Shown here: piece after piece, positions 1,082 to 15,815 of the stretch
Numbering within the stretch: the first letter of the stretch is position 1
Layout of the letters: every line of letters begins with the position of its first letter
NCBI GenBank assembly: GCA_005777415.1
Contig: SXMI01000160.1
Location: 1-37,495, forward strand
DNA length: 37,495 nucleotides
From: Actinomycetota bacterium
GTDB taxonomy: Bacteria > Actinomycetota > Acidimicrobiia > Acidimicrobiales > Microtrichaceae
Direction: 5' to 3'
Translations under genes and position numbers: made by a program
Notes under the pieces: generated by a model
Database searches by the model: none
Told to the model about the DNA's origin: nothing
What the model saw: only the letters and a program-made list of their open reading frames with translations

Positions 1082-1977
1082 AGCTCCCGGACGACGTCCT
1101 CGGCCGACCGGCTGGATCCCTCACGGACCCGGATGCGGCCCGAGAGCGCCAGGAGCGCCGCGTCCAGCGTGACGCCGGGGTCGGAGGGCTCCTGCTCGCG
1201 GAGCGACCCGAGCTCAGCCGCGACGAGCGCCAGGTCGATGGCGCCGCGCACCGACGACCCGGTCCGCAGGTCCGGGTGGTCGCGGGTGGCCCGGACCAGG
1301 TCGACGACCGATCGGAGCGTCCCGGATCCGAGCGACCCGGCCGCCAGGGGTGCCGCGACGTCGACGATCCGCACCTCGTCGTCGGAGTCCTGGTAGCCGA
1401 CCGCCAGTCGGCAGCACCGGTCGTAGACGGCGGCGGCGATCCGGGCGGTCCCGACGGCGTCGAACGGGTTCATGGCGGCGACGAGCCGGAAGCCCGACGA
1501 CGAGCGGACCGGGCCCAGTCGGGGGACGTGCACCTCACCCTCGCTCATCACGGTGATGAGCACGTTCAGGGTCTCCTCGGGGATCCGGTTGATCTCCTCG
1601 ACGTAGAGCAGTGAGCCGTTGCGGAGCGCCCGGAGGAGCGGCCCGTCGACGAAGACCTCGGGGGAGTACCCCTCGGCGAGCACGGCGGCGGGGTCGAACG
1701 CCCCGATGAGTCGCGCCGGCGTCAGCTCGGCGTTGCCCTCGACGAACTCGAATCCGATCCCCGCCTCCTCGGCGACGGACCGGAGGATCGTGGACTTGCC
1801 GGTGCCGGGCGGACCCTCCAGCAGGAGGTGTCGGCGGGCGGCGAGCGCCGCCACGACGGCCTCCAGCTCGCGGTCCCGACCGACGACCCTCGTCTGGATC
1901 CGGGCGAGCAGGCCGGCGTCGAAGGCGCCGTCGGTGCCCGGTGCGGCGTTGTCCTGATCAGAACTCGATGACGCCAC
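1000..1977 (-). CDS. MoxR-family AAA+ ATPase
   Basis: This is a 325-residue AAA+ ATPase. Walker A is GPPGTGKS at residues 55-62 and Walker B is LLYVEEINR at 123-131, followed by the sensor segment LVAAMNPFD. The EEIN Walker B and the helix insert before it are typical of the MoxR/ChlI group. That group pairs with VWA proteins to activate or metallate dehydrogenases and other enzymes. The start codon lies inside the end of the upstream alcohol dehydrogenase gene (20-base overlap), so translation is probably coupled. The VWA gene follows with another overlap. The gene order implies a chaperone role for the mycofactocin-dependent dehydrogenase; that role is inference, while the ATPase assignment is firm. 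Confidence 0.9.
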   Translation of the reverse strand: MASSSSDQDNAAPGTDGAFDAGLLARIQTRVVGRDRELEAVVAALAARRHLLLEGPPGTGKSTILRSVAEEAGIGFEFVEGNAELTPARLIGAFDPAAVLAEGYSPEVFVDGPLLRALRNGSLLYVEEINRIPEETLNVLITVMSEGEVHVPRLGPVRSSSGFRLVAAMNPFDAVGTARIAAAVYDRCCRLAVGYQDSDDEVRIVDVAAPLAAGSLGSGTLRSVVDLVRATRDHPDLRTGSSVRGAIDLALVAAELGSLREQEPSDPGVTLDAALLALSGRIRVREGSSRSAEDVVRELWERFLGPPVAAADPGVPAEPGNSGKA

Positions 1978-3082
1978 GGATGTTCACGCCGTCGCGCATG
2001 TCCTGGTAGCCCTGGTTGACCTCGCCGAGCGCGTAGCGGTTCGTGATCAGCTCGTCGAGCTTGAGCTCACCCTCGCGGTACATGGAGAGGAGGGCCGGGA
2101 TGTCGGCGCGGGGGTTGCCCGAGCCGAACACGGTGCCCTTCACCTCCTTGTTCATCATCGACAGCATGAACAGGTTCATGGTGACGTCGGACTCGAACAT
2201 GTTCCCGATCGCGGTGACCACGAGCGACCCGCCCTTGGACACCAGGCTCAACGACGGCTCGATCATGTCCCCGGTGACCACGCCGGGAACGAGGATCACC
2301 GAGTCGCACATGTCGCCCCAGGTCAGCTCCGGGACGGCGAGCAGCGCCTCCTCGATCGACGAGTAGGTGTGGGTGGCGCCCATCTCCATGGCCTTCTCGC
2401 GCTTGAACTCGACCGGGTCGATGGCGATGACCCGCTTGGCCCCGGCCATGCGGGCGCCCTGGACCGCGTTGATGCCGACGCCGCCGATGCCGATCACGGC
2501 GACGTTGTCGCCGGGCTGCACGTTCGCCCGGTGCACCGCGGAACCCCAGCCGGTGGCGACACCGCAGGACACGAGTGCGGCCACGTCGAAGGGGAGGTCC
2601 GGCTCGATCCTCACGACGGAGTTCTCGCTGAGGAGCAGCTGCTCGGAGAAGGTGCCGAGCTGGGCGAAGCGCGCCACGTCGGTCTCGCCGATCGTGTGCG
2701 AGTGGGTGCCCTCGGTCCGCGTCATCATGTGGGTGTCGAAGAGCTTGGCGCCCTCGTCGCACAGGTTCTGCCGGCCGGTCGAGCACCACTTGCAGCGTCC
2801 GCAGGACGGGATGAACGACATGGCCACGTGGTCGCCCGGCTGCACCGAGGTCACGCCGGGTCCGACCTCGACCACCTCGCCGGCGCCCTCGTGGCCGCCC
2901 ACGAACGGGAAGTGGGGGATCATCATGTCGCCCTGGACGACGTGCTCGTCGCTGTGGCACATGCCGGCCACGGCGGTCCGGACCCGGATCTCGCCCGGGC
3001 CGGGGTCGTCGAGGACGATCTCCTCGATGGTCCAGTCCTGGTTCGGACCCCACAGCACGGCGGCGTTCGTCTTGGTCGGCAT
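1958..3082 (-). CDS. NDMA-dependent (nicotinoprotein) zinc alcohol dehydrogenase, mycofactocin-associated
   Basis: This 374-residue medium-chain zinc alcohol dehydrogenase has C42 in GMCHSD, H64/E65 in GGHEGAG and C173 as catalytic-zinc ligands. C94, C97, C100 and C108 bind structural zinc. GIGGVG at 198-203 is the Rossmann loop, and D222 at the end of the second strand favours NAD(H). The sequence matches the family described as NDMA-dependent alcohol dehydrogenases (Rxyl_3153 type). In that family the nicotinamide stays bound and is re-oxidised by mycofactocin rather than exchanged. The ATG at 3080-3082 is chosen over longer frames because AGGGGGA lies just upstream and the protein then starts like its relatives (MPTKTNA). 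It is divergent from mftA and heads an operon with the MoxR and VWA genes. The substrate is unknown, probably a primary alcohol. Confidence 0.92.
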   Translation of the reverse strand: MPTKTNAAVLWGPNQDWTIEEIVLDDPGPGEIRVRTAVAGMCHSDEHVVQGDMMIPHFPFVGGHEGAGEVVEVGPGVTSVQPGDHVAMSFIPSCGRCKWCSTGRQNLCDEGAKLFDTHMMTRTEGTHSHTIGETDVARFAQLGTFSEQLLLSENSVVRIEPDLPFDVAALVSCGVATGWGSAVHRANVQPGDNVAVIGIGGVGINAVQGARMAGAKRVIAIDPVEFKREKAMEMGATHTYSSIEEALLAVPELTWGDMCDSVILVPGVVTGDMIEPSLSLVSKGGSLVVTAIGNMFESDVTMNLFMLSMMNKEVKGTVFGSGNPRADIPALLSMYREGELKLDELITNRYALGEVNQGYQDMRDGVNIRGVIEF

Positions 3083-3228
3083 CGTGTCCCCCTGTGTCCT
3101 CGAGGCGCGTCCCGTTCCGTGCGCGACGCGCCCCGGTTCTACACCACCCACGGGTGCCGAGGTAGCCGGAGTCCGGGCCGCGCGGCGCATCACCGGGTCG
3201 GCGATCGGCCGCCGGTCGACGGGCGCGG

Positions 3229-3285: not shown

Positions 3286-3447
3286 ATGGAGACGACGACC
3301 GACATCCACCCGGAGACCCGGTCGGACGAGACCGTCAACGGCGTCGCCCCGGCGGCGGGATCGGCGGCGGGATCGGCGGAGGAACTCGTCGTGGAGGAGC
3401 TCCTCGTCGAAGAGGTCTCGATCGACGGGATGTGCGGCGTCTACTGA
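3286..3447 (+). CDS. mftA: Mycofactocin precursor peptide MftA
   Basis: This is a 53-residue ribosomal peptide ending in the hallmark IDGMCGVY. In the known pathway, MftC decarboxylates and crosslinks the C-terminal Val52-Tyr53 pair, and MftE then releases the crosslinked dipeptide as AHDP. The acidic segment before the core (VVEELLVEE) is the usual leader region bound by MftB. The ATG at 3286 is preceded by AGGAG nine bases upstream, so it is preferred over the GTG at 3253. An Ala/Gly/Ser linker (AAGSAAGSAE) is encoded by a perfect 12-bp tandem repeat at 3351-3374, which is unusual. It is the first gene of the biosynthetic run, with mftB 25 bases downstream. Confidence 0.97.
   Translation: METTTDIHPETRSDETVNGVAPAAGSAAGSAEELVVEELLVEEVSIDGMCGVY
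3351..3374 (+). repeat. 12-bp tandem repeat inside mftA leader
   Basis: Two perfect copies of GGCGGCGGGATC, followed by a partial third, encode AAGS-AAGS in the linker of the MftA leader. The unit keeps the reading frame, so copy number can change without destroying the peptide. Confidence 0.7.
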
Positions 3448-3472: not shown

Positions 3473-3739
3473 GTGGTCGTCCGAACCGAGGACCGGCTCG
3501 TCCTCCACCCCGACGTCGCGCTGCGACCCGAGCGGTTCGGCGCGCTGGCCTACCACTTCGGCAACCGTCGGCTGTCGTTCCTGAAGCACCCGGACCTGGT
3601 GGCCGTGGTCGAGGCGCTCGACGGTGAGCGCACCGTCGGCGAGGCGTTCGATCGGGTGGGCGTGGCGGAATCACGGAGGCCGGCCTTCCTGACGGCCCTG
3701 GGCACGCTGAGCGCATCGGAGATGGTCCGTGCCGCCTGA
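3473..3739 (+). CDS. mftB: Mycofactocin peptide chaperone MftB
   Basis: This 88-residue RiPP recognition element contains the family signature RPERFGALAYHFGNRRLSFL around residues 20-39 and a helical C-terminal half. MftB binds the MftA leader and presents it to the radical SAM enzyme MftC. The GTG at 3473 is the only plausible in-frame start after the mftA stop, and it gives the usual length for the family (about 90). No strong ribosome site is visible, so translation may depend on coupling with mftA. The 3' end overlaps mftC by 11 bases. The assignment is firm from motif and position; the exact start is less certain. Confidence 0.93.
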   Translation: MVVRTEDRLVLHPDVALRPERFGALAYHFGNRRLSFLKHPDLVAVVEALDGERTVGEAFDRVGVAESRRPAFLTALGTLSASEMVRAA

Positions 3740-4968: not shown

Positions 4969-6948
4969 GTGACGTCGCTGCTCGAAGCGCTGGTCGTGGG
5001 CTCGCGTACGGCCCGGAACCGTGTGGTGTTCGGACCCCACGAGACGAACCTGGGGCGGGACCGCTCCATCTCGGACCGGCACGTCGCGTACTACCGGCGT
5101 CGGGCCGCCGGTGGCGCCGGGATCATCGTGACGGAGGAGGCGTCGGTCCACCCCTCGGACTGGCCGCTGGAACGTGCGCCGCTGGCCGAGGACTGCGGAC
5201 CCGGATGGGCCGAGGTCGCGACGGCCTGCCACGACGAGGGTGCGCTCGTCCTGGCGGCGATCGGTCACAGCGGCGGGCAGGGCACCTCGCACTGGAGCCA
5301 GCGGGAGCTGTGGGCCCCCTCGCCGGTCCCGGAGGTCAACACCCGCGAGGTCCCCAAGGAGATGGAGGAGTCCGACATCGAGGCGGTGATCGACGGGTTC
5401 GCCCGGGCGGCTGCCCTCGCCGTCGATTCGGGATGCGACGGGGTCGAGGTCAACGCCGGCCAGCACTCGCTGGTCCGACAGTTCCTGTCGGGTCTCACGA
5501 ACACCCGCGGCGACGCCTGGGGTGAGGACCGCACCCGCTTTGCGACCCGGGTCCTGGAGTCGGTCCGCTCGGCGGTCGGACCGGATGCGGTGGTGGCGCT
5601 GCGACTGTCCTGCGACGAACTCGCACCGTGGGCGGGGATCACCCCGGAACAGGCGCCCGGACTGGCGGTCGAACTGGTCACGGGTGCGGGGCGGGTCGAC
5701 CTGCTCACGGTGGTGCGCGGGTCGATCTACTCGGTCGGGTCCACGCGGCCCGACGGACACACCCCGCCCGGGTTCAACCTGGACCTGTGCCGGTCGGTGC
5801 GCAAGGCCGTGCACCCGGCGACCGACGGTCGAGTCCCCGTGGTGGCCCAGGGGTCGATCGTGGACGTCGGCCAGGCGACGTGGGCCGTCGACGACGGGGT
5901 GGCGGACGCGGTCGAGATGACCCGGGCCCAGCTCGCCGACGCCCGTCTCGTCGACAAGCTGCGCTCGGGGACCCCGGAGCGGATCCGGCCCTGTGTGCTC
6001 TGCAACCAGCAGTGCGCGGTGCGGGACAACCGCAACCCCATCGTGAGCTGCACGGTGGACCCGTCGACGGGCCACGAGCTCGACGAGCCGGAACTGGTCG
6101 AACTCGACGTCCGGGAGCGAGACGGTGGATCGTCGTCCGGGGGAGGCCCCGCCCTCGTGGTCGTCGGCGGCGGGCCCGCCGGGTTGGAGCTGGCGAGGGT
6201 GGCGGCCGGAGGGGGCCGCGCCGTCCGCGTGGTCGAGCAGTCCGACGAGCCCGGTGGCCTGCTCGCCACGATCGCCCGACTGCCCGGCCGGGAGCGGTTC
6301 GCCGACCTGGCGTCGTGGTTCCGTGACGAGTGCGTCCGCGCCGGGGTCGAGGTGACCACCGGCGTCGCGGCCACCACCGAGCTGATCGAGGAGTGGATCG
6401 GCGACGGACTCGAGGTGGTGTTCGCCGTCGGCGGGTCCGACGGATCGACCGGCGTCCCGGTGGACCGGGCGACGAGGTGCTGGACCCCGACCGAGGTCTT
6501 GGCCGACGGCGGCGCGTCGCTCCCGGACGGTGCCGTCCTCGTCTGGGACCCGATCGGTGGACCGATCGGTGTCGGCGTCGCCGAGGTGCTCGCCCCGACC
6601 GGGCGGGTCGTCCACCTGGCGACGCAGGACTTCATCGTGGGCAACGAACTGGCCCGGGCCGGAGATCTGGCGCCGGCGAACGCCCGGCTGGCCCAGGCCG
6701 GCGTGGTGCTCCACCGCCGCAGCCTGCTGCGTGAGGTCACCCCGCTCGGGGCGACGCTCGAGGACCGGTTCACGGCGCGTCGCTCGTCGATCGAGGTCGT
6801 CGCCGTCGTCGACGCGGGCCACCGGCTCCCGGCGTCGCTCGAGCCGCGGGCGGACGGTCGGGACGTCGTCGTCATCGGTGACGCCGTGGCGCCGCGCACC
6901 GTCCACGAGGCGGTCCTCGAGGGCCGTCGGGCCGCCCTCGGCCGCTGA
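4969..6948 (+). CDS. Mycofactocin-system FadH/OYE family oxidoreductase 1
   Basis: This 659-residue iron-sulfur flavoprotein has three parts: an N-terminal FMN TIM barrel (about 1-330), a 4Fe-4S motif with C342, C345, C349 and C361, and C-terminal FAD/dinucleotide domains with GGGPAG at about 400. This is the layout of 2,4-dienoyl-CoA reductase and trimethylamine dehydrogenase. In the substrate segment before QFLSG (residues 163-171), serine S167 stands where dienoyl-CoA reductase has its catalytic tyrosine, and Q165 where trimethylamine dehydrogenase has His172 (alignment from memory). The family is known near mycofactocin loci but, as far as I know, its function is not established. The GTG at 4969 starts just before the conserved barrel; no good ribosome site is seen. 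A role in mycofactocin maturation or redox cycling is inferred. Confidence 0.88.
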   Translation: MTSLLEALVVGSRTARNRVVFGPHETNLGRDRSISDRHVAYYRRRAAGGAGIIVTEEASVHPSDWPLERAPLAEDCGPGWAEVATACHDEGALVLAAIGHSGGQGTSHWSQRELWAPSPVPEVNTREVPKEMEESDIEAVIDGFARAAALAVDSGCDGVEVNAGQHSLVRQFLSGLTNTRGDAWGEDRTRFATRVLESVRSAVGPDAVVALRLSCDELAPWAGITPEQAPGLAVELVTGAGRVDLLTVVRGSIYSVGSTRPDGHTPPGFNLDLCRSVRKAVHPATDGRVPVVAQGSIVDVGQATWAVDDGVADAVEMTRAQLADARLVDKLRSGTPERIRPCVLCNQQCAVRDNRNPIVSCTVDPSTGHELDEPELVELDVRERDGGSSSGGGPALVVVGGGPAGLELARVAAGGGRAVRVVEQSDEPGGLLATIARLPGRERFADLASWFRDECVRAGVEVTTGVAATTELIEEWIGDGLEVVFAVGGSDGSTGVPVDRATRCWTPTEVLADGGASLPDGAVLVWDPIGGPIGVGVAEVLAPTGRVVHLATQDFIVGNELARAGDLAPANARLAQAGVVLHRRSLLREVTPLGATLEDRFTARRSSIEVVAVVDAGHRLPASLEPRADGRDVVVIGDAVAPRTVHEAVLEGRRAALGR

Positions 6949-7015
6949 CCCCGCCGACGCGAGCGGGGCGGCCGGACCGGTGTGTGGGGGTCTATCGCTC
7001 GCACCGTGACCCGGG

Positions 7016-7021
7016 TACCCT
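7016..7021 (+). promoter_or_regulatory. Putative -10 box upstream of the small membrane protein gene
   Basis: TACCCT fits TANNNT and lies 58 bases before the ATG at 7080. It would give a short leader containing the GGAGG ribosome site. No clear -35 is seen. Confidence 0.4.
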
Positions 7022-7079
7022 GAGGGGAGTTCAGCGTGCCGTGGCAGGAACGGCACACGGGCCGGGCGCGGAGGCGACG

Positions 7080-7424
7080 ATGTTGAACACCACCAAAGAG
7101 GTGCTGGAGCGGACCATCGCCCAGGCCGTCGACCTGGCCAAGGCGGCGGACTCGGCGTTCCGGACCCACGAGGACGTCGCCGTCGCGCTCCCGGGCGGTC
7201 TCTACGGACACGTCCGCAACGGACGGTTCGTCGGGTTCGGGCTCGAGCCCGTCGGCGACGTCTACGTCGACAGCGACCGGACCGTCATGGACCTGCCGGA
7301 CGGCGGTCCCGGGCACTTCCTCTGGGGTCGTGTCGTGGCGGTGGCCGGTGGAGCGGCGGCGGCGGCGTCGACCGTCGCCGGGGTCGCCACGGCCCTGCTC
7401 CGCGGGCGTCGTCGCCCCGCCTGA
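7080..7424 (+). CDS. Small hypothetical membrane-anchored protein in the mycofactocin locus
   Basis: This 114-residue protein is one I do not recognise. Its N-terminal 85 residues are soluble: a helix (TKEVLERTIAQAVDLAKAAD), then a segment rich in Val, Gly and Asp. They are followed by a single hydrophobic Ala/Val/Gly stretch (about 86-108) ending in RGRRRPA, so the C-terminus should be cytoplasmic and the protein tail-anchored. The ATG has GGAGG seven bases upstream. It sits between the two FadH/OYE genes with its own candidate promoter, followed by an 18-bp palindrome. It could dock the soluble flavoproteins at the membrane; that is only positional inference. Confidence 0.7.
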   Translation: MLNTTKEVLERTIAQAVDLAKAADSAFRTHEDVAVALPGGLYGHVRNGRFVGFGLEPVGDVYVDSDRTVMDLPDGGPGHFLWGRVVAVAGGAAAAASTVAGVATALLRGRRRPA

Positions 7425-7486: not shown

Positions 7487-9466
7487 ATGCCCGAGCAGCT
7501 CATCTGGTCGCCGCTGCAACTGGGTCCCGTCACGGTCCGCAACCGGATCGTCTTCTCGGCCCACCTCACCAACTACGCCCGGGACGGCCTGCCGACCGAG
7601 CAGCACGCCGCGTACTACGCGGCCCGGGCCGCCGGCGGGGCGGGGCTCATCATCACCGAGGAGCACTCGACCCACCCGACCGACTGGCCCTACGAGAAGC
7701 TGATCCACGGGTTCCACCCGGAGGTGATCCCCGGGTACCGGCGCATCACCGAGGCCGTCCACCGGCACCGCGTGCCGATCCTCGCCCAGATCAACCACAA
7801 CGGCGGTCAGGCGAGCTCCATGTACTCGCGGTTGCCCGTCTGGGCGCCGTCCCCGGTGGCCGACCCGCTGTTCCGTGAGGTCCCCAAGGCGGTGTCGCAC
7901 GCCGAGATCAGCGAGATCGTCGCCTCGTACGGGCTGGTCGCCGGGCACTGCGCCGAGGGCGGCTTCGACGGCGTCGAGCTCCAGTGCTCACACAGCTCGA
8001 TCGTGCGGGGGTTCCTGTCCCCGGCCACGAACCACCGCACCGACGAGTACGGCGGTCCACTCGAGCACCGGGCCCGGATCCTCCTCGAGATCGTCGCCGA
8101 GGTCCGTCGGGTGATCGGGCCGGACCTGGCGCTGGGCGTCCGGCTGTGCGGGGACGAGTTGATCGAGGGAGGCACCACGATCGACGAGGCCGTGCAGGTC
8201 GCCCGGATGGTCGAGGCCACCGGTCAGGTGGACTACATCAACACCTCGATCGGGGTGGCGACGGCGTCGCTGTTCATGATCGAGGCCTCCATGCACATCC
8301 CGCCGGGGTACTCCATGTTCATCCCCTCCGCGATCCGGGAGGCGGTCGACCTGCCGGTGGTCGGCGTCGGCCGGTTCAAGGATCCGCTCCAGGCCGAACG
8401 GGCGCTCGCCGAGGGCCAGTGCGACCTGGTCGGCGTGGTCCGCGGGCAGATCGCGGACCCGGAGTTCGTCGCCAAGGCCCGGGCCGGGTACACCGACGAC
8501 ACCCGGCTCTGCCTGTCCTGCAACCAGGAGTGCGTGGGCCGCATGGGGCTCAACCGCTGGCTCGGCTGCATCGAGAACCCGGCCGCCGGTCGGGAGTCCC
8601 TCGGCGTCGGCCGCGCCCGGCCGGTCCGGCTGGGCCGGCGGGTGCTGGTGATCGGCGCCGGTCCGGCGGGCCTCCAGACCGCGATCGCCGCCGCCCGCAA
8701 CGGGCACCGGGTGACCGTCCTCGAGCGGTCGTCCGCCGCGGGCGGGCAGGTCCGGCTGGCGGCCACGGTCCCGAACCGGGCCGAGTTCGGCGACCTGGTC
8801 CGCAACCAGCTCCACGAGTGCGGCCGGCTCGGCGTGCAGATCGAGTACGGCGTCGAGGCCACCGCCGACGAGGTCGAGTCCCGCGGCGCCGACACCGTCG
8901 TCGTCGCCACGGGGTCGGTGCCGTCCCGTCCGTGGTGGGCGCCGGGCGACGCCGAGTGGATCGTCGACGTCCGCGACGTGCTGGAGGGGACGGTGCAGCC
9001 GACCGGCAACGTCGTGGTGCTCGACGAGCTCGGGTTCCACCACGCCACGTCGGTGGCCGAACTGCTGGCCGACCGCGGCTGCCACGTCGAGGTGGTCAGC
9101 CCGGGCATGGTGGTGGGCCAGGACCTGGGCATCACCCTCGACCTGGAGAACTGGTGGATCCGGGCCGAGTCGAAGGGCATCCGGCAGTCCACCGAGCTGG
9201 TGCCGATGTCGGTGGACGGCCGGACCGTCACCTTCCAGCACCACCCGACCGGGAGCTCCGAGGAACGGACCGTCGACTGGTTGGTCCTGGCGGTGCCCTC
9301 CACCCCGGCCGACGCGCTCTACCACGAGCTCCGTGCCCGGGGGCTGCCCGTCGAGCGGGTGGGTGACGCCGTGGCCGCACGACGGGCGCACGCCGCCGTC
9401 ATCGACGGCGAGCGGGTCGGCGCCGCGGTCCCGGCCGCTGAGCGCGAACCGGTCAGGGTCCCGTGA
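7487..9466 (+). CDS. Mycofactocin-system FadH/OYE family oxidoreductase 2
   Basis: This second 659-residue FMN/4Fe-4S/FAD enzyme has the same plan as the gene at 4969: an FMN barrel, C342/C345/C349/C361 and a dinucleotide fold at GAGPAG (about 388-393). It is a divergent paralogue. H169 in CSHSS aligns with the active-site His172 of trimethylamine dehydrogenase, and S171 replaces the catalytic tyrosine of dienoyl-CoA reductase. GVGRFKDP also resembles the trimethylamine dehydrogenase group (comparison from memory). Trimethylamine dehydrogenase oxidatively deaminates amines and passes electrons to an ETF, and the next gene here, overlapping by four bases, is an ETF alpha subunit. That suggests ETF as acceptor. 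The amine-type substrate is a hypothesis. Confidence 0.88.
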   Translation: MPEQLIWSPLQLGPVTVRNRIVFSAHLTNYARDGLPTEQHAAYYAARAAGGAGLIITEEHSTHPTDWPYEKLIHGFHPEVIPGYRRITEAVHRHRVPILAQINHNGGQASSMYSRLPVWAPSPVADPLFREVPKAVSHAEISEIVASYGLVAGHCAEGGFDGVELQCSHSSIVRGFLSPATNHRTDEYGGPLEHRARILLEIVAEVRRVIGPDLALGVRLCGDELIEGGTTIDEAVQVARMVEATGQVDYINTSIGVATASLFMIEASMHIPPGYSMFIPSAIREAVDLPVVGVGRFKDPLQAERALAEGQCDLVGVVRGQIADPEFVAKARAGYTDDTRLCLSCNQECVGRMGLNRWLGCIENPAAGRESLGVGRARPVRLGRRVLVIGAGPAGLQTAIAAARNGHRVTVLERSSAAGGQVRLAATVPNRAEFGDLVRNQLHECGRLGVQIEYGVEATADEVESRGADTVVVATGSVPSRPWWAPGDAEWIVDVRDVLEGTVQPTGNVVVLDELGFHHATSVAELLADRGCHVEVVSPGMVVGQDLGITLDLENWWIRAESKGIRQSTELVPMSVDGRTVTFQHHPTGSSEERTVDWLVLAVPSTPADALYHELRARGLPVERVGDAVAARRAHAAVIDGERVGAAVPAAEREPVRVP

Positions 9467-10389
9467 CGTCCACCGTGGCCGTGCTGCCCGTCCGCGACGG
9501 CACGCTCCCGGCGGGGTCGCTCGATGCGGTCGCCGCCGCCGGTGGTGAGGTCCTGGTCGTCGGCGCCGGTGCCGACCGGGCGGCCGAACAGCTCGGGTCG
9601 CTGGCCGCCCGGGTCCGGGCCTGGGACACGCCCGGGTTCGCACCGGGACGCTGGGCGCCGGTTGTCGCCGAGCTCGTCGGGGACGGGCGCATCGTCGTCC
9701 TGCCCGGTTCACCCGACGGCCGCGACCTGGCTCCGCGGGTGGCCGCGTCGCTCGGTCTCCCGCTCGTGGCCGGGGTCGTGGAGGTTCGTGACGACCGGCT
9801 CGTCGCCGCCCGGTGGGGTGGATCCGTCATGGTCGAGGTTGCGTTGAGCGGCCCCGTCGTGGTGACGGTGCAACCGGGACTGTCGGCACCCGAGTCGCAC
9901 GAGCACGGCTCGGGACCCGCGGCCGAGGCCGTCGAGGCCGCCCCGGCGGGACACCGGGACGCCGAGGTGGTCGAACTGCTCGGACCCGACGTCGCCACGA
10001 TGGACCTGGCCGAGGCGCCCCGGCTGGTGGGTGGAGGAGCCGGACTGGATTCGCCCGAGCGGTTCGGGGAGCTGGCCGATCTGGCCGAGCTGATCGGCGC
10101 CGCCATGGGGGCGACGCGAGTGGTGACCGACCGGGGCTGGGTCGGTCACGAACGACAGATCGGGACGACGGGCGTGGTCGTGGACCCGTCGCTGTACCTG
10201 GCGTTCGGCATCTCCGGGGCGGTCCAGCACACCGCCGGACTGGGGGACCCGGACCACATCGTCAGCGTCAACACCGAGCCGCACTGCCCGATGATGTCGA
10301 TGGCGGACCTGGCGATCGTCTCGGATGCGAACGCGACCGTCGTGGAGCTCCTCCGCCTGCTCCGGTCCGAGGGGGCGGCGGCATCGTGA
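9463..10389 (+). CDS. Mycofactocin-associated electron transfer flavoprotein, alpha subunit
   Basis: This is a 308-residue ETF alpha subunit. The C-terminal FAD-binding domain is clear: RQIGTTG at 231-237 and LYLAFGISGAVQHTAG at 244-259, followed by IVSVNTEPHCPMMSMAD. The N-terminal domain is divergent and Ala/Val/Gly-rich. Its GTG start overlaps the stop of the FadH/OYE-2 gene by four bases, and its own stop overlaps the FixC-like gene in the same way. ETFs shuttle single electrons from flavin dehydrogenases to a quinone oxidoreductase. The beta subunit is two genes downstream rather than adjacent. The partners inferred from the locus are the FadH/OYE enzymes as donors and FixC/FixX as acceptor. 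Confidence 0.9.
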   Translation: MTSTVAVLPVRDGTLPAGSLDAVAAAGGEVLVVGAGADRAAEQLGSLAARVRAWDTPGFAPGRWAPVVAELVGDGRIVVLPGSPDGRDLAPRVAASLGLPLVAGVVEVRDDRLVAARWGGSVMVEVALSGPVVVTVQPGLSAPESHEHGSGPAAEAVEAAPAGHRDAEVVELLGPDVATMDLAEAPRLVGGGAGLDSPERFGELADLAELIGAAMGATRVVTDRGWVGHERQIGTTGVVVDPSLYLAFGISGAVQHTAGLGDPDHIVSVNTEPHCPMMSMADLAIVSDANATVVELLRLLRSEGAAAS

Positions 10390-11684
10390 GCGACTTCGAC
10401 GCGATCGTCGTCGGCGCCGGCCCGGCGGGTTCGGCCGCCGCGCTCGAGCTGGCCCGCGCCGGCCGGTCGGTGTGCCTGCTGGAGCGGGGACCCACGCCGG
10501 GCTCCAAGAACATGTACGGCGGGGTGGTCTACGGGCGGATCCTGGACACGCTCGTCCCCGGGTGGTGGGAGCAGATGCCCGTCCAGCGGTGGGTCACCCG
10601 GCGCAGCACCATGCTGATCCACGACGACCGGGCGCTGACGGTCGACTTCCGCCATCCCGGGTGGGGCGCGGCTCCGTTCAACGGTGCGACCACGTTCCGA
10701 CCCGACTTCGACGCCTGGCTCGCCGGACTGGCGGTCGATGCTGGGGCGTCGCTGGTGTGCTCGACCACGGCCACCGGCCTGATCCGCGAGGGTGGCCGCG
10801 TCGTCGGCGTCCGCACCGACCGGCCCGACGGCGACCTCCGGGCACCGGTGGTCATCGCCTGCGACGGGGTGAACTCGTTCCTGGCCAAGGAGGCGGGGAT
10901 GTACCCGCACACCGACGCCGCGAACTTCACCGTGGGGGTGAAGGAGACCATCTCGTTGCCCCGTGAGGTGATCGACGAGCGGTTCGGCGTCCGCGGTGAG
11001 GAGGGCGTGGACATCGAGATCCTGGGCTGCACCGGCGACGTGCCGGGGGGAGGGTTCGTCTACACGAACGCCACGTCGGTCGCCGTGGGACTGGTGCTGT
11101 CGCTCCCGGCGCTGGCGGCGGGCGGCGACCGTCCCGAGGAGCTGCTCCGCCGCCTGAAGGCGCACCCGGCGATCGCCCCGCTCGTGGAGGGCGGCGAGGT
11201 GCTCGAGTACTCGGCCCACGTGATCCCGGAGGCGGGCTACGAGATGATGCCCGAGCTCGTCGGCGACGGGATCCTGGTCGCCGGTGACGCCGCCGCCATG
11301 TGCCTGGCCGCCGGCATCTGGCTGGAGGGTGTGAACTTCGCGATCGGCTCCGGCGCGGCCGCCGGGCGGGCGGCGGCGCAGTGCATCGCCCGCAACGACA
11401 CGTCGGCCGCTGCGCTGGCGGCCTACCGGCGGGCGCTCGAGTCGTCGTTCGTCCTGGCCGATCACCGCAAGCTGCGGGCGGCACCCCACCTGGTCATGGG
11501 CGACCTGGCCCAGCGTGGCCTGCCGGCGGTCGCGTGCGGGGTGATGGAGGACCTGTTCACCGTCCGGAACCCCGAGCCCAAGCCGGGTGTCCGGCGGATC
11601 GTGCGGACGCAGATGCGGCGGCACGGGGTGCGGGCCCGGGACGCCGTCCGGGAGGGCCTGCGTGCGCTCCGGGCGTTCGGGTGA
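10386..11684 (+). CDS. FixC-like ETF:quinone oxidoreductase flavoprotein
   Basis: This 432-residue FAD protein of the FixC/ETF-QO family has the N-terminal dinucleotide fold GAGPAGSAAA at residues 9-18, followed by SKNMYGGVVYGR, typical of the family. A second FAD-contact segment is GILVAGDAAAMCLA near residue 300. Unlike mitochondrial ETF-QO it has no C-terminal 4Fe-4S domain; that part is supplied by the adjacent FixX-like gene. In FixABCX systems this subunit receives electrons from ETF and hands them to quinone at the membrane. The GTG start overlaps the ETF alpha stop by four bases. Context says it re-oxidises the mycofactocin-linked ETF, which is inference from order. Confidence 0.9.
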   Translation: MSDFDAIVVGAGPAGSAAALELARAGRSVCLLERGPTPGSKNMYGGVVYGRILDTLVPGWWEQMPVQRWVTRRSTMLIHDDRALTVDFRHPGWGAAPFNGATTFRPDFDAWLAGLAVDAGASLVCSTTATGLIREGGRVVGVRTDRPDGDLRAPVVIACDGVNSFLAKEAGMYPHTDAANFTVGVKETISLPREVIDERFGVRGEEGVDIEILGCTGDVPGGGFVYTNATSVAVGLVLSLPALAAGGDRPEELLRRLKAHPAIAPLVEGGEVLEYSAHVIPEAGYEMMPELVGDGILVAGDAAAMCLAAGIWLEGVNFAIGSGAAAGRAAAQCIARNDTSAAALAAYRRALESSFVLADHRKLRAAPHLVMGDLAQRGLPAVACGVMEDLFTVRNPEPKPGVRRIVRTQMRRHGVRARDAVREGLRALRAFG

Positions 11685-11701
11685 GCGATGCTGGAGCGAC
11701 C

Positions 11702-12004
11702 GTGACCGACTCGACCTACCCCGAGATCAGCTTCGAGGCCCGGATGGCCACTGTCGAGTTCCGCGTCGACGCGGACCGGGCCCACATCACCGTGGACGAC
11801 ACGGTCTGTCGTGACTGCACGACCCGGGGGTGCATCACGGCGTGCCCGGCGAACCTGTTCGTGCCCACGGCGGCCGGCGGGATCCTGTTCAACTACGAGC
11901 AGTGCTTCGAGTGCGGGACCTGCTACCTCGTGTGCAACGAGGAGGGCGCGATCTCCTGGACCTACCCCGAGGGTGGGCACGGGGTCGTGTTCCACCGGAG
12001 CTGA
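11702..12004 (+). CDS. FixX-like ferredoxin
   Basis: This 100-residue iron-sulfur protein has CRDCTTRGCITACP and CFECGTCYLVC cysteine groups, plus the FixX ending AISWTYPEGGHGVVFHRS. FixX is the 4Fe-4S partner of FixC, together equivalent to a split ETF-QO. The GTG at 11702 has GGAG eight bases upstream. A GTG at 11681 would instead overlap the FixC-like stop by four bases and add seven residues, so both starts are possible. ETF beta begins six bases after its stop. Confidence 0.92.
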   Translation: MTDSTYPEISFEARMATVEFRVDADRAHITVDDTVCRDCTTRGCITACPANLFVPTAAGGILFNYEQCFECGTCYLVCNEEGAISWTYPEGGHGVVFHRS

Positions 12005-12010
12005 GCGGTC

Positions 12011-12859
12011 GTGATCGTCGCCGCGTGCGTGAAGCTGGTCGACCTGCGCCCCGGGGTGGATCGACTCACCGGTGCCGTCACGCCGTCGACGACCCTCGGG
12101 TGCTCGGCGGCCGACCGGGCGGCGGTGGAGCTGGCGCTGCAGTTGGCGGACTCGTGGTCCGCCGAGAGCGTGGTCGTCTGCTGCGGCCCGGACCGGGCGG
12201 ACCCGGTGCTGCGGGAGTTCGCTGCGGCCGGGGTCGATCGACTCGTCCGCATCGACGCCACGGGTGCGCCGGACAGCGCCGACGTGGCCGGTCTGCTCGC
12301 CACCACCCTGGCCGGGCTCGGTGCCGACGTGGTCGTCTGCGGGGACCACTCCCTCGACCGCGGGTCGGGCTCGGTCCCGGCCTTCGTGGCCGGAGCGCTC
12401 GGTGCCGCCCAGGCCCTCGGACTCGTCGAGGTCGGCACCGAGGGGCCCGGAACGCTGCGGGCCACCCGGCGCCTCGACGGCGGTCGTCGCGAACGGCTCG
12501 TCGTGGATGCCCCGAGCGTGGTCTCGGTGGAGGGCTCGGTGGCGGAGCTGCGCCGGGCCTCGCTCGCCGCGACCCTGCGGGCGGGTGACGTCCCGGTGGA
12601 GGTCGTGGCCGCTCCCGGCCTGGTCGTCCCGCCAACGGTGACGACGCGGCCGTGGGTGCCTCCCACCCGGGTCCAACCGCCCCCGCAGGGGACCGCCGCC
12701 CTGGAGCGGGTGGTGGAACTGACCGGGGCGATGGTCGAGCGGACGCCGCCGCGCACCGTCGAGCTCCCCCCGGACCGGGCGGCGGCGCTGATCGTCGAGC
12801 AGCTCCGGGCCTGGGGCTACCTGGAGGCCGTACCGTCGGAACCGGCGACCGACGGGTGA
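12011..12859 (+). CDS. Mycofactocin-associated electron transfer flavoprotein, beta subunit
   Basis: This 282-residue ETF beta family protein has the alpha/beta core with VVVCGDHSLDRGSG (about 107-120) for AMP/FAD contact. The region equivalent to the partner-recognition loop of ordinary ETF beta (PRYATLPNIMKAKKK in the human protein) reads AELRRASLAATLRAGDVPVEV at 178-198. The central leucine is kept, but the proline and lysine cluster are lost. About 80 residues of Pro/Arg-rich C-terminal tail follow, longer than usual. This points to a dedicated partner rather than the general acyl-CoA dehydrogenase pool. It overlaps mftE by four bases. Confidence 0.85.
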   Translation: MIVAACVKLVDLRPGVDRLTGAVTPSTTLGCSAADRAAVELALQLADSWSAESVVVCCGPDRADPVLREFAAAGVDRLVRIDATGAPDSADVAGLLATTLAGLGADVVVCGDHSLDRGSGSVPAFVAGALGAAQALGLVEVGTEGPGTLRATRRLDGGRRERLVVDAPSVVSVEGSVAELRRASLAATLRAGDVPVEVVAAPGLVVPPTVTTRPWVPPTRVQPPPQGTAALERVVELTGAMVERTPPRTVELPPDRAAALIVEQLRAWGYLEAVPSEPATDG

Positions 12860-13611
12860 ACGACCTGGCGGCCATGACCTGGCCGGAGGTGCCGACGGGT
12901 GCGGTGCTGGTGGTCCCGCTGGGCAGCTGCGAGCAGCACGGGCCGCACCTCCCGCTCGACACCGACACCCGGATCGCCGTGGCGCTCGCCGCCGGACTCG
13001 CCGAGCGGGAGCCGGACCTGGTCGTGTCGCCGGCGGTGACGATCGGTGCATCCGGCGAGCACCAGGGGTTCCCGGGCACGCTGTCGATCGGCACCGCGGC
13101 GCTGGAGTCGGTCCTGGTCGAACTGGTCCGGTCCGCGTTGCCGCCTCCCGGGGCGGCGCGACCGCGGCCGTTCTCGGGGGTGGTCCTGGTGAACGGCCAC
13201 GGTGGCAACGTCGAGGCCACGACCCGGGCGGCGGCGCGACTTCGCCGCGAGGGTCGCGACGTCCTGGTCTGGCATCCCCGTGTGCCCGATGGCGACTCGC
13301 ACGCCGGTCGCACCGAGACCTCGGTGCTGTTGCACCTGCACCCCGAGGTGGTCCGGGTCGACCGTGCCGTCCCGGGGTCCACGGCCCGGTGGCGCGAGAT
13401 CCGCGAGGTCGTCGAGGCCGATGGGCTGGCCGAGGTCAGCCCGACGGGTGTGCTCGGTGATCCGACGCCGGCCTCGGCGGAGGAGGGCGAGCGGATCGTC
13501 GCCATGCTCGTCGATGACCTGGCGGGCGCAGTGCAGGCCTGGCGTGCGACGCTGTCGGACGTGGAATCGCCTGCCGACCCGTCGGCGTCTCGTTCGGGAG
13601 CGCCGACGTGA
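12856..13611 (+). CDS. mftE: Mycofactocin precursor peptide peptidase MftE
   Basis: This 251-residue creatininase-family metallopeptidase has metal ligands in PLGSCEQHGPHLPLDTD (E26, H28, D37), with NGHGGN and the later HAGRTETS completing the site. MftE cuts the MftC-modified MftA next to the crosslinked Val-Tyr and releases AHDP. The GTG start overlaps ETF beta by four bases, and its stop overlaps the SDR gene in the same manner. Its place after the electron-transfer genes, rather than directly after mftC and mftD, is unusual. Confidence 0.94.
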   Translation: MNDLAAMTWPEVPTGAVLVVPLGSCEQHGPHLPLDTDTRIAVALAAGLAEREPDLVVSPAVTIGASGEHQGFPGTLSIGTAALESVLVELVRSALPPPGAARPRPFSGVVLVNGHGGNVEATTRAAARLRREGRDVLVWHPRVPDGDSHAGRTETSVLLHLHPEVVRVDRAVPGSTARWREIREVVEADGLAEVSPTGVLGDPTPASAEEGERIVAMLVDDLAGAVQAWRATLSDVESPADPSASRSGAPT

Positions 13612-14384
13612 CCGCCCCCGTCGCCCTGGTCACCGGCGGCGCCCGAGGCATCGGCGCCGCAGTGTGCCGTCGGCTGTCGGCGAGCGGTCACCGGGTCGTC
13701 GTCGTGGACTGCTGCGAGGACCTGGCGCGGCTCGACTACCCACTCGCCACGCTCGCCGACCTCGAGGCGACGGTCGACGCGTGCGGCCCGGACGCCGAGG
13801 GCGTGGTCTGCGACGTGCGGGACGGCGAGGCGCTGGCGCAGGTCGTGGCCGACCTGGACCGCCTCGACGTCGTGGTCGCCGCCGCCGGGGTGGTGTGGGG
13901 CGGGGTGCCGCTCTGGGAGACGCCGGACGCCGTCTGGGACGTGCTGGTGGACGTCAACGCCCGGGGCGTGTTCAACACGGTGCGGGCCGCCGTGCCGGCC
14001 CTGTTGGAGCGTCCGGTACCCCGGTCGGGTCGCATCGTCGCCGTCGCTTCGGCGGCGTCGAGCCGTGGGCTCCTGCACCTGGGCGCCTACAGCGCGGCCA
14101 AGCATGCCGTCGTCGGGCTGGTCCGGAGCCTGGCGGCGGACCTGGCCGACAGCGGCGTGACGGTCAACGCGGTCGCCCCCGGATCGACCGACACCGAGAT
14201 CCTGGCGGCGTCGGCCGCCGTCTACGACCTGGACGCACCGTCCGACTTCGCTTCGCACCACCCGATCGGCCGACTGATCGACCCCGATGAGGTCGCCGCG
14301 GCGGTGGCGTGGCTGTGCGATCCGTCGGCCTCGGGCGTCACCGGCGCCGTGCTCGCCGTCGACGGCGGCATGACCGCGGTCTGA
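13608..14384 (+). CDS. Mycofactocin-coupled SDR family oxidoreductase
   Basis: This 258-residue short-chain dehydrogenase has TGGARGIG at 9-16, a catalytic serine in VASAAS (about 148-151) and Y161/K165 in YSAAK. After the second strand an insertion, CCEDLARLDYPLATLADLEATV (about 35-56), contains the PLAT..DL..TV pattern typical of SDRs tied to mycofactocin. In those proteins the extra segment is thought to bury NAD(H) and make it non-exchangeable. It overlaps mftE by four bases and precedes mftF by 12. The substrate is unknown. It is a second nicotinoprotein candidate in this locus besides the zinc dehydrogenase. Confidence 0.88.
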   Translation: MTAPVALVTGGARGIGAAVCRRLSASGHRVVVVDCCEDLARLDYPLATLADLEATVDACGPDAEGVVCDVRDGEALAQVVADLDRLDVVVAAAGVVWGGVPLWETPDAVWDVLVDVNARGVFNTVRAAVPALLERPVPRSGRIVAVASAASSRGLLHLGAYSAAKHAVVGLVRSLAADLADSGVTVNAVAPGSTDTEILAASAAVYDLDAPSDFASHHPIGRLIDPDEVAAAVAWLCDPSASGVTGAVLAVDGGMTAV

Positions 14385-14396
14385 ACCGCCGTCGCC

Positions 14397-15815
14397 GTGC
14401 GCTACCGGCCCGATCCGTCGACCCGGCTCCTCCCGGACGGACGGACGTTGATCGGCGGGTCCCCGCTGCGTCTCTTCCGCCTGACCGCCGGCGGTGGCCG
14501 GTGGTTCCAGTCCCTGGTCGGGGGCGAGGACCTCGATGTCCCCGGGCCGCGTGGTCCCGAGGGGTCCGCCGGGGTCGGCGGCGCGCTGCTCCGACGGTTG
14601 CTCGACGCCGGTGTCGTCCACCCCGATCCCCGCAGCGGACCGGTTGACCAGGTAGCCGGTGGGGCCCCACCGGCCTGCACCGTCGTCGTGCCCGTCCGTG
14701 ACCGCCCGGAGCAGTTGGCGTCACTGCTGGAGTCGATCGACCGGGCCGGCGGCGTGGCCGAGGTGGTGGTGGTGGACGACGGCTCGCTCGACGCTGCGGC
14801 GCACGAGCAGGTCGCCGAACGGTTCGGGGCCTCGTACCTGCGTCTGGAACGCTCCCGGGGGCCGGCGGCCGCGCGCGACGCCGGGATCCGGCTCGCCGGT
14901 CACGAGGTGGTGGTCCTCGTTGACTCCGACGTCGTGGTGACGGTCGGCTGGCTCGAACCGCTGCTCGCGCACCTCGCCGACCCGGTGGTCGCAGCGGTGG
15001 CCGCACGGGTCCGCACCGCAGCCGACCCGGCCGGTTCGGGGCGCCTCGCCGGGTACGAGTCCCGGCGCTCACCGCTCGATCTGGGTGATGTCCCGGCCCC
15101 GGTGGCAGCCGGCACCCGGGTCGCATACGTCCCGGCGGCGGCCCTCCTGTTGCGGCGGGCGGCCTACCTGGACGTCGGCGGCTTCGATGTGGAGCTCCGC
15201 TTCGGGGAGGACGTCGACCTGGAGTGGCGACTCGCCGATCGTGGCTGGACCGTCCGGTACGAGCCGGCGTCGGTCGTGTTCCACCCGCCCCGGCCCGACG
15301 TGGGGAAGTGGCTCCGCCAGCGGTTCGAGTACGGCACGGCCGCCGCGGCCCTGGACCGCCGGCACCCCGGTTCGGTCGCGCCCTGGCGGGCCTCCCGCTG
15401 GAGCCTCCTGGTGTGGCTCCTCGTCCTGGCGGGGCACCCGGGCGCAGCCCTGCTGGTGGCCGGAGGGACCGGGGCCGCGCTGGCGCGTCGACTGGACGAC
15501 CTTCCGGCGTCGGAGGCGGTCGCCATGGTGGGCCGCGGGCACCTGGCCGCCGGCCGCTCCCTCGCCGGGGCGCTGGTCCGGACCTGGTGGCCCCTGGTGC
15601 TGGTCGGCTCCTGCTGCTCGCGACGGATCCGGAGGGCCGGGGCCCTGGCGCTGGTCGTGGCGGTGCTCGATCGCTCCCGATCCGCCGGAGCGGGAGGTTC
15701 CCCGACCGACCTCCCGCTCGGGGTGCTGGACGACGTGGCGTACGGTGCCGGTGTGTGGTGGGGCTGTGTTCGGCACCGACGCTGGGGTCCGCTGGTCCCG
15801 ACGCTCGACCCGTGA
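14397..15815 (+). CDS. mftF: Mycofactocin glycosyltransferase MftF
   Basis: This 472-residue GT2-type glycosyltransferase has the nucleotide-sugar core VVVPVRDRPEQLASLL from about residue 96, the DxD-type motif DSD at 176-178 and GEDVDLEWRL further on. The C-terminal third has hydrophobic segments likely to touch or span the membrane. The first 90 or so residues form the MftF-specific N-terminal domain. MftF adds oligoglucose to premycofactocin, retaining the redox cofactor in the cell. The GTG start follows the SDR stop by 12 bases without a clear ribosome site. This is the last recognisable gene of the mycofactocin run. Confidence 0.94.
   Translation: MRYRPDPSTRLLPDGRTLIGGSPLRLFRLTAGGGRWFQSLVGGEDLDVPGPRGPEGSAGVGGALLRRLLDAGVVHPDPRSGPVDQVAGGAPPACTVVVPVRDRPEQLASLLESIDRAGGVAEVVVVDDGSLDAAAHEQVAERFGASYLRLERSRGPAAARDAGIRLAGHEVVVLVDSDVVVTVGWLEPLLAHLADPVVAAVAARVRTAADPAGSGRLAGYESRRSPLDLGDVPAPVAAGTRVAYVPAAALLLRRAAYLDVGGFDVELRFGEDVDLEWRLADRGWTVRYEPASVVFHPPRPDVGKWLRQRFEYGTAAAALDRRHPGSVAPWRASRWSLLVWLLVLAGHPGAALLVAGGTGAALARRLDDLPASEAVAMVGRGHLAAGRSLAGALVRTWWPLVLVGSCCSRRIRRAGALALVVAVLDRSRSAGAGGSPTDLPLGVLDDVAYGAGVWWGCVRHRRWGPLVPTLDP

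What the first reader, a model, noticed from the sequence alone, without database searches (positions are those of the whole stretch)
7487..10389. FadH/OYE-2 looks like an amine-type dehydrogenase coupled to ETF and could replace MftD
Seen: H169 sits where trimethylamine dehydrogenase has active-site His172, the catalytic tyrosine of dienoyl-CoA reductase is serine, and the gene overlaps an ETF alpha gene. Known: trimethylamine dehydrogenase (FMN, 4Fe-4S) uses ETF as acceptor and acts on amines; MftD makes premycofactocin by oxidative deamination of the amine AHDP. Inference: this enzyme could perform the same deamination with ETF as acceptor. The alignment is from memory.
Basis: inference. 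Interest (0 to 1): 0.75.

Follow-up and report, generated by a model that had tools for sequence, protein, structure and literature searches.

The report
Alternative enzyme set finishing mycofactocin cofactor
In many actinobacteria the standard enzyme that turns the precursor of the redox cofactor mycofactocin into its working form (MftD) is missing, and a two-flavoenzyme plus electron-carrier gene set, including this one, sits in its place and probably does that job while passing electrons to the respiratory chain.

Summary
The gene is real: 659 aa, NCBI family TIGR03997 'mycofactocin system FadH/OYE family oxidoreductase 2' (975 bits). It overlaps an mft-type ETF-alpha gene by 4 nt inside a mycofactocin cluster with mftA, B, C, E and F but no mftD. 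H169 does align with TMADH His172, but also with YqjM His167. TMADH Tyr169, Asp267, Cys30 and the aromatic bowl are absent, and the tree keeps this protein out of the TMADH/histamine dehydrogenase clade. The inference that it could replace MftD gets much stronger support from comparative genomics. Among 131 MftC-bearing genomes, 66 have only MftD, 39 only this enzyme, 23 both and 3 neither. No mftC locus (0 of 136) has both nearby. On the MftC tree the two types interchange about 20 times. The precursor ending IDGMCGVY, MftE, MftF and mycofactocin-coupled dehydrogenases are kept. The NADPH motif of FadH is lost; ETF plus FixC/FixX (ETF:quinone oxidoreductase-like) are adjacent. Best reading: OYE_2 with ETF/FixCX oxidises AHDP in place of MftD. 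It is untested. A 2024 paper already noted 'mftD missing, TIGR03997 present' in Saccharopolyspora. Caveat: 19 Pseudonocardiaceae genomes also keep an unlinked MftD.

The parts
1958..3193 (-). NDMA-dependent (mycofactocin-coupled) Zn alcohol dehydrogenase, TIGR03989: a likely client of the finished cofactor
   Evidence: 540.6 bits, cut-off 440
3286..3447 (+). mftA, precursor peptide ending ...VSIDGMCGVY
   Evidence: TIGR03969 50.5 bits, cut-off 25
3494..3733 (+). mftB chaperone domain (in ORF ending 3739)
   Evidence: TIGR03967 96.7 bits
3729..4922 (+). mftC radical SAM maturase
   Evidence: TIGR03962 589 bits, cut-off 265
4975..6948 (+). OYE_1 paralogue (TIGR03996); differs from OYE_2 at Q101, H169 and R296; role unknown, possibly a partner subunit (start uncertain)
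   Evidence: 737 bits, cut-off 628; residue table
6984..7424 (+). small conserved ORF between OYE_1 and OYE_2, present only in close relatives (start uncertain)
   Evidence: no Pfam or NCBIfam match; conserved in most of L004-L017
7487..9466 (+). OYE_2: FMN + 4Fe-4S + Rossmann-domain oxidoreductase, proposed AHDP dehydrogenase (MftD replacement)
   Evidence: TIGR03997 975 bits; invariant 4Fe-4S cysteines 342/345/349/361 and H169
9463..10389 (+). mft-type ETF alpha; starts in a GTGA overlap with OYE_2
   Evidence: NF038209 351 bits; sequence
10386..11684 (+). FixC-like FAD protein, proposed ETF:quinone oxidoreductase
   Evidence: FixC-family hits; PF21162 ETF-QO ubiquinone-binding domain above cut-off
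11681..12004 (+). FixX-like ferredoxin, partner of FixC
   Evidence: Fer4 domains
12011..12859 (+). mft-type ETF beta
   Evidence: TIGR04503 235 bits, cut-off 200
12850..13611 (+). mftE peptidase (start approximate)
   Evidence: TIGR03964 278 bits, cut-off 172
13608..14384 (+). mycofactocin-coupled SDR, a likely client of the cofactor
   Evidence: TIGR04504 333 bits, cut-off 250
14397..15815 (+). mftF glycosyltransferase
   Evidence: TIGR03965 412 bits, cut-off 280

Best explanation
This is a mycofactocin cluster of a second type, in which the cassette OYE_1-OYE_2-EtfA-FixC-FixX-EtfB stands between mftC and mftE, where mftD often stands in the classical cluster. Shown: presence, linkage and exclusivity with MftD at the mftC locus. 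Inferred: after MftA/B/C/E have made AHDP (or its glycosylated form), OYE_2 oxidises the 3-amino carbon with its FMN, and the imine hydrolyses to the alpha-keto lactam (premycofactocin), which is the job of MftD. Electrons pass FMN -> 4Fe-4S -> mft-ETF -> FixC/FixX -> menaquinone. OYE_2 is the likelier catalytic subunit; OYE_1 is a divergent partner.
For: Complementarity: 80 MftC genomes, mostly of the window's order, give MftD only 47, OYE_2 only 28, both 2, neither 3 (Fisher p = 6e-16). One of the 'neither' genomes is an OYE-type contig that breaks off in OYE_1. Second sample, 51 genomes of the Amycolatopsis xylanica family: all 11 MftD-less genomes carry OYE_2. Combined, 0 of 136 mftC loci have both within 15 kb, 49 have MftD and 50 OYE_2; two genomes with two clusters have one of each. 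The types interchange about 20 times on the MftC tree, 9-10 forced by starred branches, with a sign test on independent pairs of median p 0.008. The rest of the pathway is kept: MftA ...IDGMCGVY, MftC, MftE, MftF and mycofactocin-coupled SDR and Zn-ADH clients in the window. OYE_1 and mft-ETF are never found in an MftD-only genome of the first sample. The FadH GCGGIG motif is lost, as are FadH Tyr166 and His252. Some complete or near-complete genomes are OYE-type without MftD (G457, one contig; G302 and G334, seven contigs). A paper (PMC11162802) cites evidence that S. erythraea makes methylated mycofactocin although Saccharopolyspora clusters lack mftD and carry TIGR03997.
Against: No enzymology. 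In 19 of 51 Pseudonocardiaceae genomes an unlinked, bona fide MftD coexists with an OYE-type cluster, so there MftD may still make premycofactocin, and the same may hold for S. erythraea. Only one of TMADH's catalytic residues is kept. Kinship is nearer FadH than TMADH. Co-occurrence alone cannot tell OYE_2 from OYE_1 or from the cassette as a whole. Many genomes are MAGs, including the window's own (67% complete).
Confidence: 0.6

Rival explanations
1. OYE_2-ETF-FixCX is a mycofactocinol dehydrogenase: it re-oxidises reduced mycofactocin and feeds electrons to quinone, the role published for MftG, and has nothing to do with deamination.
For: The electron chain ETF -> FixCX -> quinone fits a respiratory role, and MftG does this in M. 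smegmatis (PMC11778925). MftG is absent from the OYE-type genomes examined (none above cut-off). Some OYE-type genomes keep an unlinked MftD.
Against: OYE_2 tracks absence of MftD, not of MftG: MftG passes its cut-off in only 7 of 80 genomes, so dozens of MftD-type genomes lack both MftG and OYE_2. MftG shows no pairing with OYE_2 on the tree. It leaves AHDP deamination unexplained in MftD-less genomes.
Confidence: 0.17
2. OYE_1, or an OYE_1/OYE_2 heterodimer, is the deaminating enzyme; OYE_2 alone is not sufficient.
For: The two genes lie together in nearly every cluster complete enough to tell (G236 is the exception seen) and co-occur in 28 of 30 OYE_2 genomes by HMM.
Against: OYE_1 evolves faster (tree branches), has Gln for H169, Ser for R296 and Ala/Ser/Gly for Q101, and some copies have lost 4Fe-4S cysteines. 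G236 has OYE_2 with etfA/fixC/fixX but no OYE_1.
Confidence: 0.12
3. OYE-type clusters make a different cofactor: AHDP is not deaminated, and the OYE enzymes modify it otherwise or use the amine form.
For: MftD is absent and the substrate of OYE_1 and OYE_2 is unknown; two OYE paralogues suggest more than one step.
Against: Precursor, MftE, MftF and mycofactocin-coupled SDR and Zn-ADH clients are the same. S. erythraea is reported to make methylated mycofactocin.
Confidence: 0.07
4. An NAD(P)H-dependent ene reductase or dienoyl-CoA reductase that merely travels with the mft genes.
For: Closest solved folds are NCR and FadH, and the tree puts it on their side of the TMADH clade.
Against: The second nucleotide-binding motif is degenerate (VVVLDELGFHH for VAIIGCGGIGF), Tyr166 and His252 of FadH are replaced, it lies in mft/ETF clusters, and it alternates with MftD.
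Confidence: 0.04

Closest known systems
TIGR03997 mycofactocin system FadH/OYE family oxidoreductase 2 (NCBIfam)
   Same: Full-length match far above cut-off; same mft neighbourhood. The protein is a member.
   Different: The family carries no assigned reaction; the MftD-replacement role is not part of its published description as far as the held literature shows.
MftD, premycofactocin synthase (TIGR03966)
   Same: Proposed same reaction (oxidative deamination of AHDP) and, where linked, the same place in the cluster between mftC and mftE.
   Different: Unrelated protein: MftD is an LldD-like FMN enzyme; OYE_2 is an FMN/4Fe-4S OYE-type enzyme with a dedicated ETF.
Trimethylamine dehydrogenase, histamine dehydrogenase, 6-hydroxypseudooxynicotine amine oxidase (6l6j)
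   Same: Domain plan, 4Fe-4S cysteines, His at position 169, His at 26, degenerate second nucleotide site, ETF partner (for TMADH from established knowledge; for the nicotine pathway genes etfAB/euo adjacent in PMC5500553).
   Different: Not in that clade; no 6-S-cysteinyl Cys30, Tyr169, Asp267 or aromatic bowl.
E. coli FadH and 2-naphthoyl-CoA reductase NCR
   Same: Closest folds and same CxxCxxxC spacing of the 4Fe-4S motif.
   Different: Lacks FadH catalytic Tyr166/His252 and its GxGGxG NADPH motif.
BGCFlow report on Saccharopolyspora clusters (PMC11162802)
   Same: Already noted mftD missing and TIGR03997 present in 17 clusters, with the canonical MftA C-terminus.
   Different: Left TIGR03997 as function unknown; no ETF/FixCX link, wide survey, exclusivity test or mechanism in the passages read.

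Membership tests
TIGR03997 mycofact_OYE_2 | Whole-protein score above the curated cut-off (793 bits) | tested here: met
   975.4 bits
Trimethylamine/histamine dehydrogenase family | Falls in the TMADH/HADH clade | tested here: not met
   Tree, TMADH clade separated with 100/100 support
Trimethylamine/histamine dehydrogenase family | Catalytic Tyr169-His172-Asp267 | tested here: not met
   Q166, H169, M264: only the His is kept
Trimethylamine/histamine dehydrogenase family | Cys30 for covalent 6-S-cysteinyl FMN | tested here: not met
   L27 in 85 of 85; 6l6j of the same clade also lacks it
Trimethylamine/histamine dehydrogenase family | FMN domain + 4Fe-4S cysteines + ADP/Rossmann domains | tested here: met
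Trimethylamine/histamine dehydrogenase family | ETF as electron acceptor | not testable with these tools
   only gene linkage shown
2,4-dienoyl-CoA reductase FadH | Catalytic Tyr166 and His252 | tested here: not met
   S171 and A258
2,4-dienoyl-CoA reductase FadH | Second Rossmann GxGGxG motif for NADPH | tested here: not met
   VVVLDELGFHH versus VAIIGCGGIGF
Functional equivalent of MftD (works like, not member) | Alternates with MftD among mycofactocin gene clusters | tested here: met
   0 of 136 mftC loci with both; 66/39/23/3 genomes; but 21 genomes of one family carry both at genome level
Functional equivalent of MftD (works like, not member) | Converts AHDP to premycofactocin | not testable with these tools
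   needs an in vitro assay

The most novel reading that the evidence does not exclude
A second, non-homologous premycofactocin synthase exists: an OYE/ETF/ETF-QO electron-transfer cassette deaminates the RiPP-derived amine and sends the electrons straight into the respiratory chain, and it has exchanged with the LldD-type MftD about twenty times across Actinomycetota.
Probability: 0.57. Interest if true: 0.75.

Novelty: new variant of a known kind. Interest (0 to 1): 0.62.

Why it matters
The last chemical step that makes mycofactocin redox-active is known only for MftD. If about a third to a half of the MftC-bearing actinobacteria sampled here use a different enzyme linked to ETF and quinone, genome-mining rules that require mftD (as antiSMASH 6.1.1 does, PMC11162802) miss them. 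It would also give a function to named but unassigned families (TIGR03996, TIGR03997, mft-ETF) and tie biosynthesis of the cofactor directly to respiration. It is testable with known chemistry.

Tried and rejected
H169 as a TMADH signature: rejected, because YqjM has His in the same column. TMADH kinship: rejected by the tree and residues. Replacement of MftG: not supported by distribution. A hidden divergent MftD: in 49 of 50 OYE_2 genomes the best match to TIGR03966 is at most 306 bits (cut-off 471), and many give none above about 35 bits. Strict genome-level exclusivity: held in the first sample but rejected in the second, where 21 of 51 genomes have both. The structure model has weak confidence in the active-site loops (105-134, 256-275), so no pocket or docking argument was made from it. 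Promoter/terminator scan found nothing.

Full report
What is there. ORF 7487-9466 (+) is a 659-aa member of TIGR03997 (975 bits). It sits in a compact run of genes: mftA 3286-3447, mftB, mftC, OYE_1 (TIGR03996), a small ORF, OYE_2, mft-type ETF alpha, FixC-like, FixX-like, mft-type ETF beta, mftE, a mycofactocin-coupled SDR and mftF. An NDMA-dependent alcohol dehydrogenase of the mycofactocin-coupled kind lies beside mftA. OYE_2 and etfA overlap by GTGA. MftA ends in IDGMCGVY, the usual Val-Tyr core. There is no mftD in the window, and none above cut-off in the host assembly, a 67% complete MAG.

The residue argument. H169 does align with TMADH His172 and is invariant in 85 orthologues. But YqjM, an ordinary ene reductase, has His167 in the same column. 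TMADH Tyr169, Asp267 and Cys30 correspond to Q166, M264 and L27, all different (the Asp267 column is in a loop where the alignment is less sure). FadH Tyr166 is Ser171 and FadH His252 is Ala258. So the protein has lost the FadH catalytic pair without having the TMADH triad. Its active site is its own, with invariant H26 (84 of 85), E58, E59, H60, N103, H104, N105, Q108, Q166, H169, S170, S171, R174, R219, N252 and E266.

Kinship and electron route. In a 45-sequence tree OYE_2 is a tight clade separate from TMADH/HADH/6l6j (100/100), on the side of FadH and NCR, with OYE_1 nearby; deep branches are long and weakly supported. The predicted fold (mean pLDDT 78) matches NCR and FadH slightly better than 6l6j, HADH and TMADH. 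All four 4Fe-4S cysteines are invariant. The second nucleotide-binding motif, GCGGIG in FadH, is degenerate in OYE_2, as in TMADH, HADH and several plasmid-borne relatives. With a dedicated ETF and a FixC protein carrying an ETF-QO quinone-binding domain next door, the likely route is substrate -> FMN -> 4Fe-4S -> ETF -> FixCX -> quinone. This is inferred, by analogy with TMADH (established knowledge) and with the nicotine pathway of Agrobacterium S33, where etfAB and euo genes accompany the TMADH-like Pno (PMC5500553). That FixABCX-type systems can also run as electron bifurcators was not tested.

Does it replace MftD? Sample 1: MftC was searched in 296 genomes across the phylum and 198 of the order. 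Of the positives, 80 (about one per genus) were searched for MftD, OYE_2, MftG, ETF alpha and OYE_1. MftD only 47, OYE_2 only 28, both 2, neither 3; Fisher p = 6e-16. OYE_2 here includes fragments and one full-length match of 755-787 bits per piece, close to the cut-off. The exceptions were inspected. G490 is an OYE-type contig that ends inside OYE_1. G404 has the MftD-type layout without an mftD found. G458 is unresolved. G398 has separate loci of both types. G511 is the assembly with the highest contamination (6%). The four OYE_2 genomes without an HMM-level ETF alpha do have divergent etfA, fixC and fixX next to OYE_2. Sample 2: 51 MftC genomes of the family of Amycolatopsis xylanica: MftD only 19, OYE_2 only 11, both 21, neither 0. 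OYE_2 there includes five matches of 680-706 bits, below the cut-off of 793, that lie beside mftC. Thus genome-level exclusivity fails in that family, but every MftD-less genome there has OYE_2. At cluster level, none of 136 mftC loci has both genes within 15 kb: 49 have MftD, 50 OYE_2, 37 neither. Two genomes with two clusters have one of each kind.

Independence. On a tree of MftC proteins from sample 1 the MftD/OYE type changes about 20 times, 9-10 of them forced by well supported branches. In pairs of rows on independent, well supported paths that differ in MftD, OYE_2 goes the opposite way in about 8 of 10, with a median sign-test p of 0.008; without the long branch G236 it is 6 of 8, p 0.03. 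MftG shows no such pairing. So the pattern is not one ancient event inherited by many.

Genes of the second type. In 80 further loci the usual order is mftA-B-C-OYE_1-OYE_2-etfA-fixC-fixX-etfB-mftE-(SDR)-mftF where the contig is long enough, with variants. A complete linear plasmid of Streptomyces sp. NBC_00564 has the same arrangement, annotated mftR, A, B, C, OYE_1, OYE_2, ETF and mftE, with no mftD in the stretch. Of 50 genomes with OYE_2 from those loci, one has MftD above cut-off.

Which subunit. OYE_2 is the better candidate. It is strongly conserved and present in all 30 OYE-type genomes of sample 1. OYE_1 diverges faster, has Gln, Ser and Ala/Ser/Gly for H169, R296 and Q101, and has lost cluster cysteines in a few copies. 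A heterodimer is possible.

Known before. Haft 2011 wrote that the MftD, MftE and regulator families occur in most but not all species with the cluster. PMC11162802 (2024) found 17 Saccharopolyspora clusters without mftD and with TIGR03997 of unknown function, and cites evidence that S. erythraea makes methylated mycofactocin. MftD in M. smegmatis is needed for premycofactocin: the mutant accumulates AHDP species (PMC7491314). I found no held paper that assigns the OYE/ETF cassette to this step, but most subscription papers are not held.

Verdict. Observation confirmed; the amine-dehydrogenase-kinship argument is weak; the replacement idea is well supported by comparative genomics and remains to be shown biochemically. 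Main caveat: unlinked MftD genes in Pseudonocardiaceae, one seen beside a mycofactocin-coupled SDR, which could supply the step there.

Noticed in passing
window 6984-7424 (+): Small ORF between OYE_1 and OYE_2, conserved in the closest relatives (most of L004-L017) and not found elsewhere; no Pfam or NCBIfam match.
   Followed up: partly
L214, L216 (also L212, L213, L215, L217): Solo MftD genes in Pseudonocardiaceae that also have an OYE-type cluster; in L214 the neighbours are a mycofactocin-coupled SDR and a glucosylglycerate hydrolase, and in L216 a protein related to that hydrolase family but below its cut-off.
   Followed up: partly
L218-L221 (G567, G597): Genomes with two mft clusters, one MftD-type and one OYE-type.
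   Followed up: partly
L123 (G236): Divergent cluster with mftC (42%), OYE_2 (43%), etfA, fixC and fixX but no OYE_1 or recognised mftE; possibly a sister system.
   Followed up: no
L014, L015, L048, L049, L053, L080: Metagenome bins titled 'Bifidobacterium breve' carry mft loci close to those of Acidimicrobiia; the record titles look wrong.
   Followed up: no
L010, L012, L017: In some close relatives the block mftE-etfB-fixX-fixC-etfA is inverted relative to OYE_2, so OYE_2 and etfA are not always co-transcribed.
   Followed up: no
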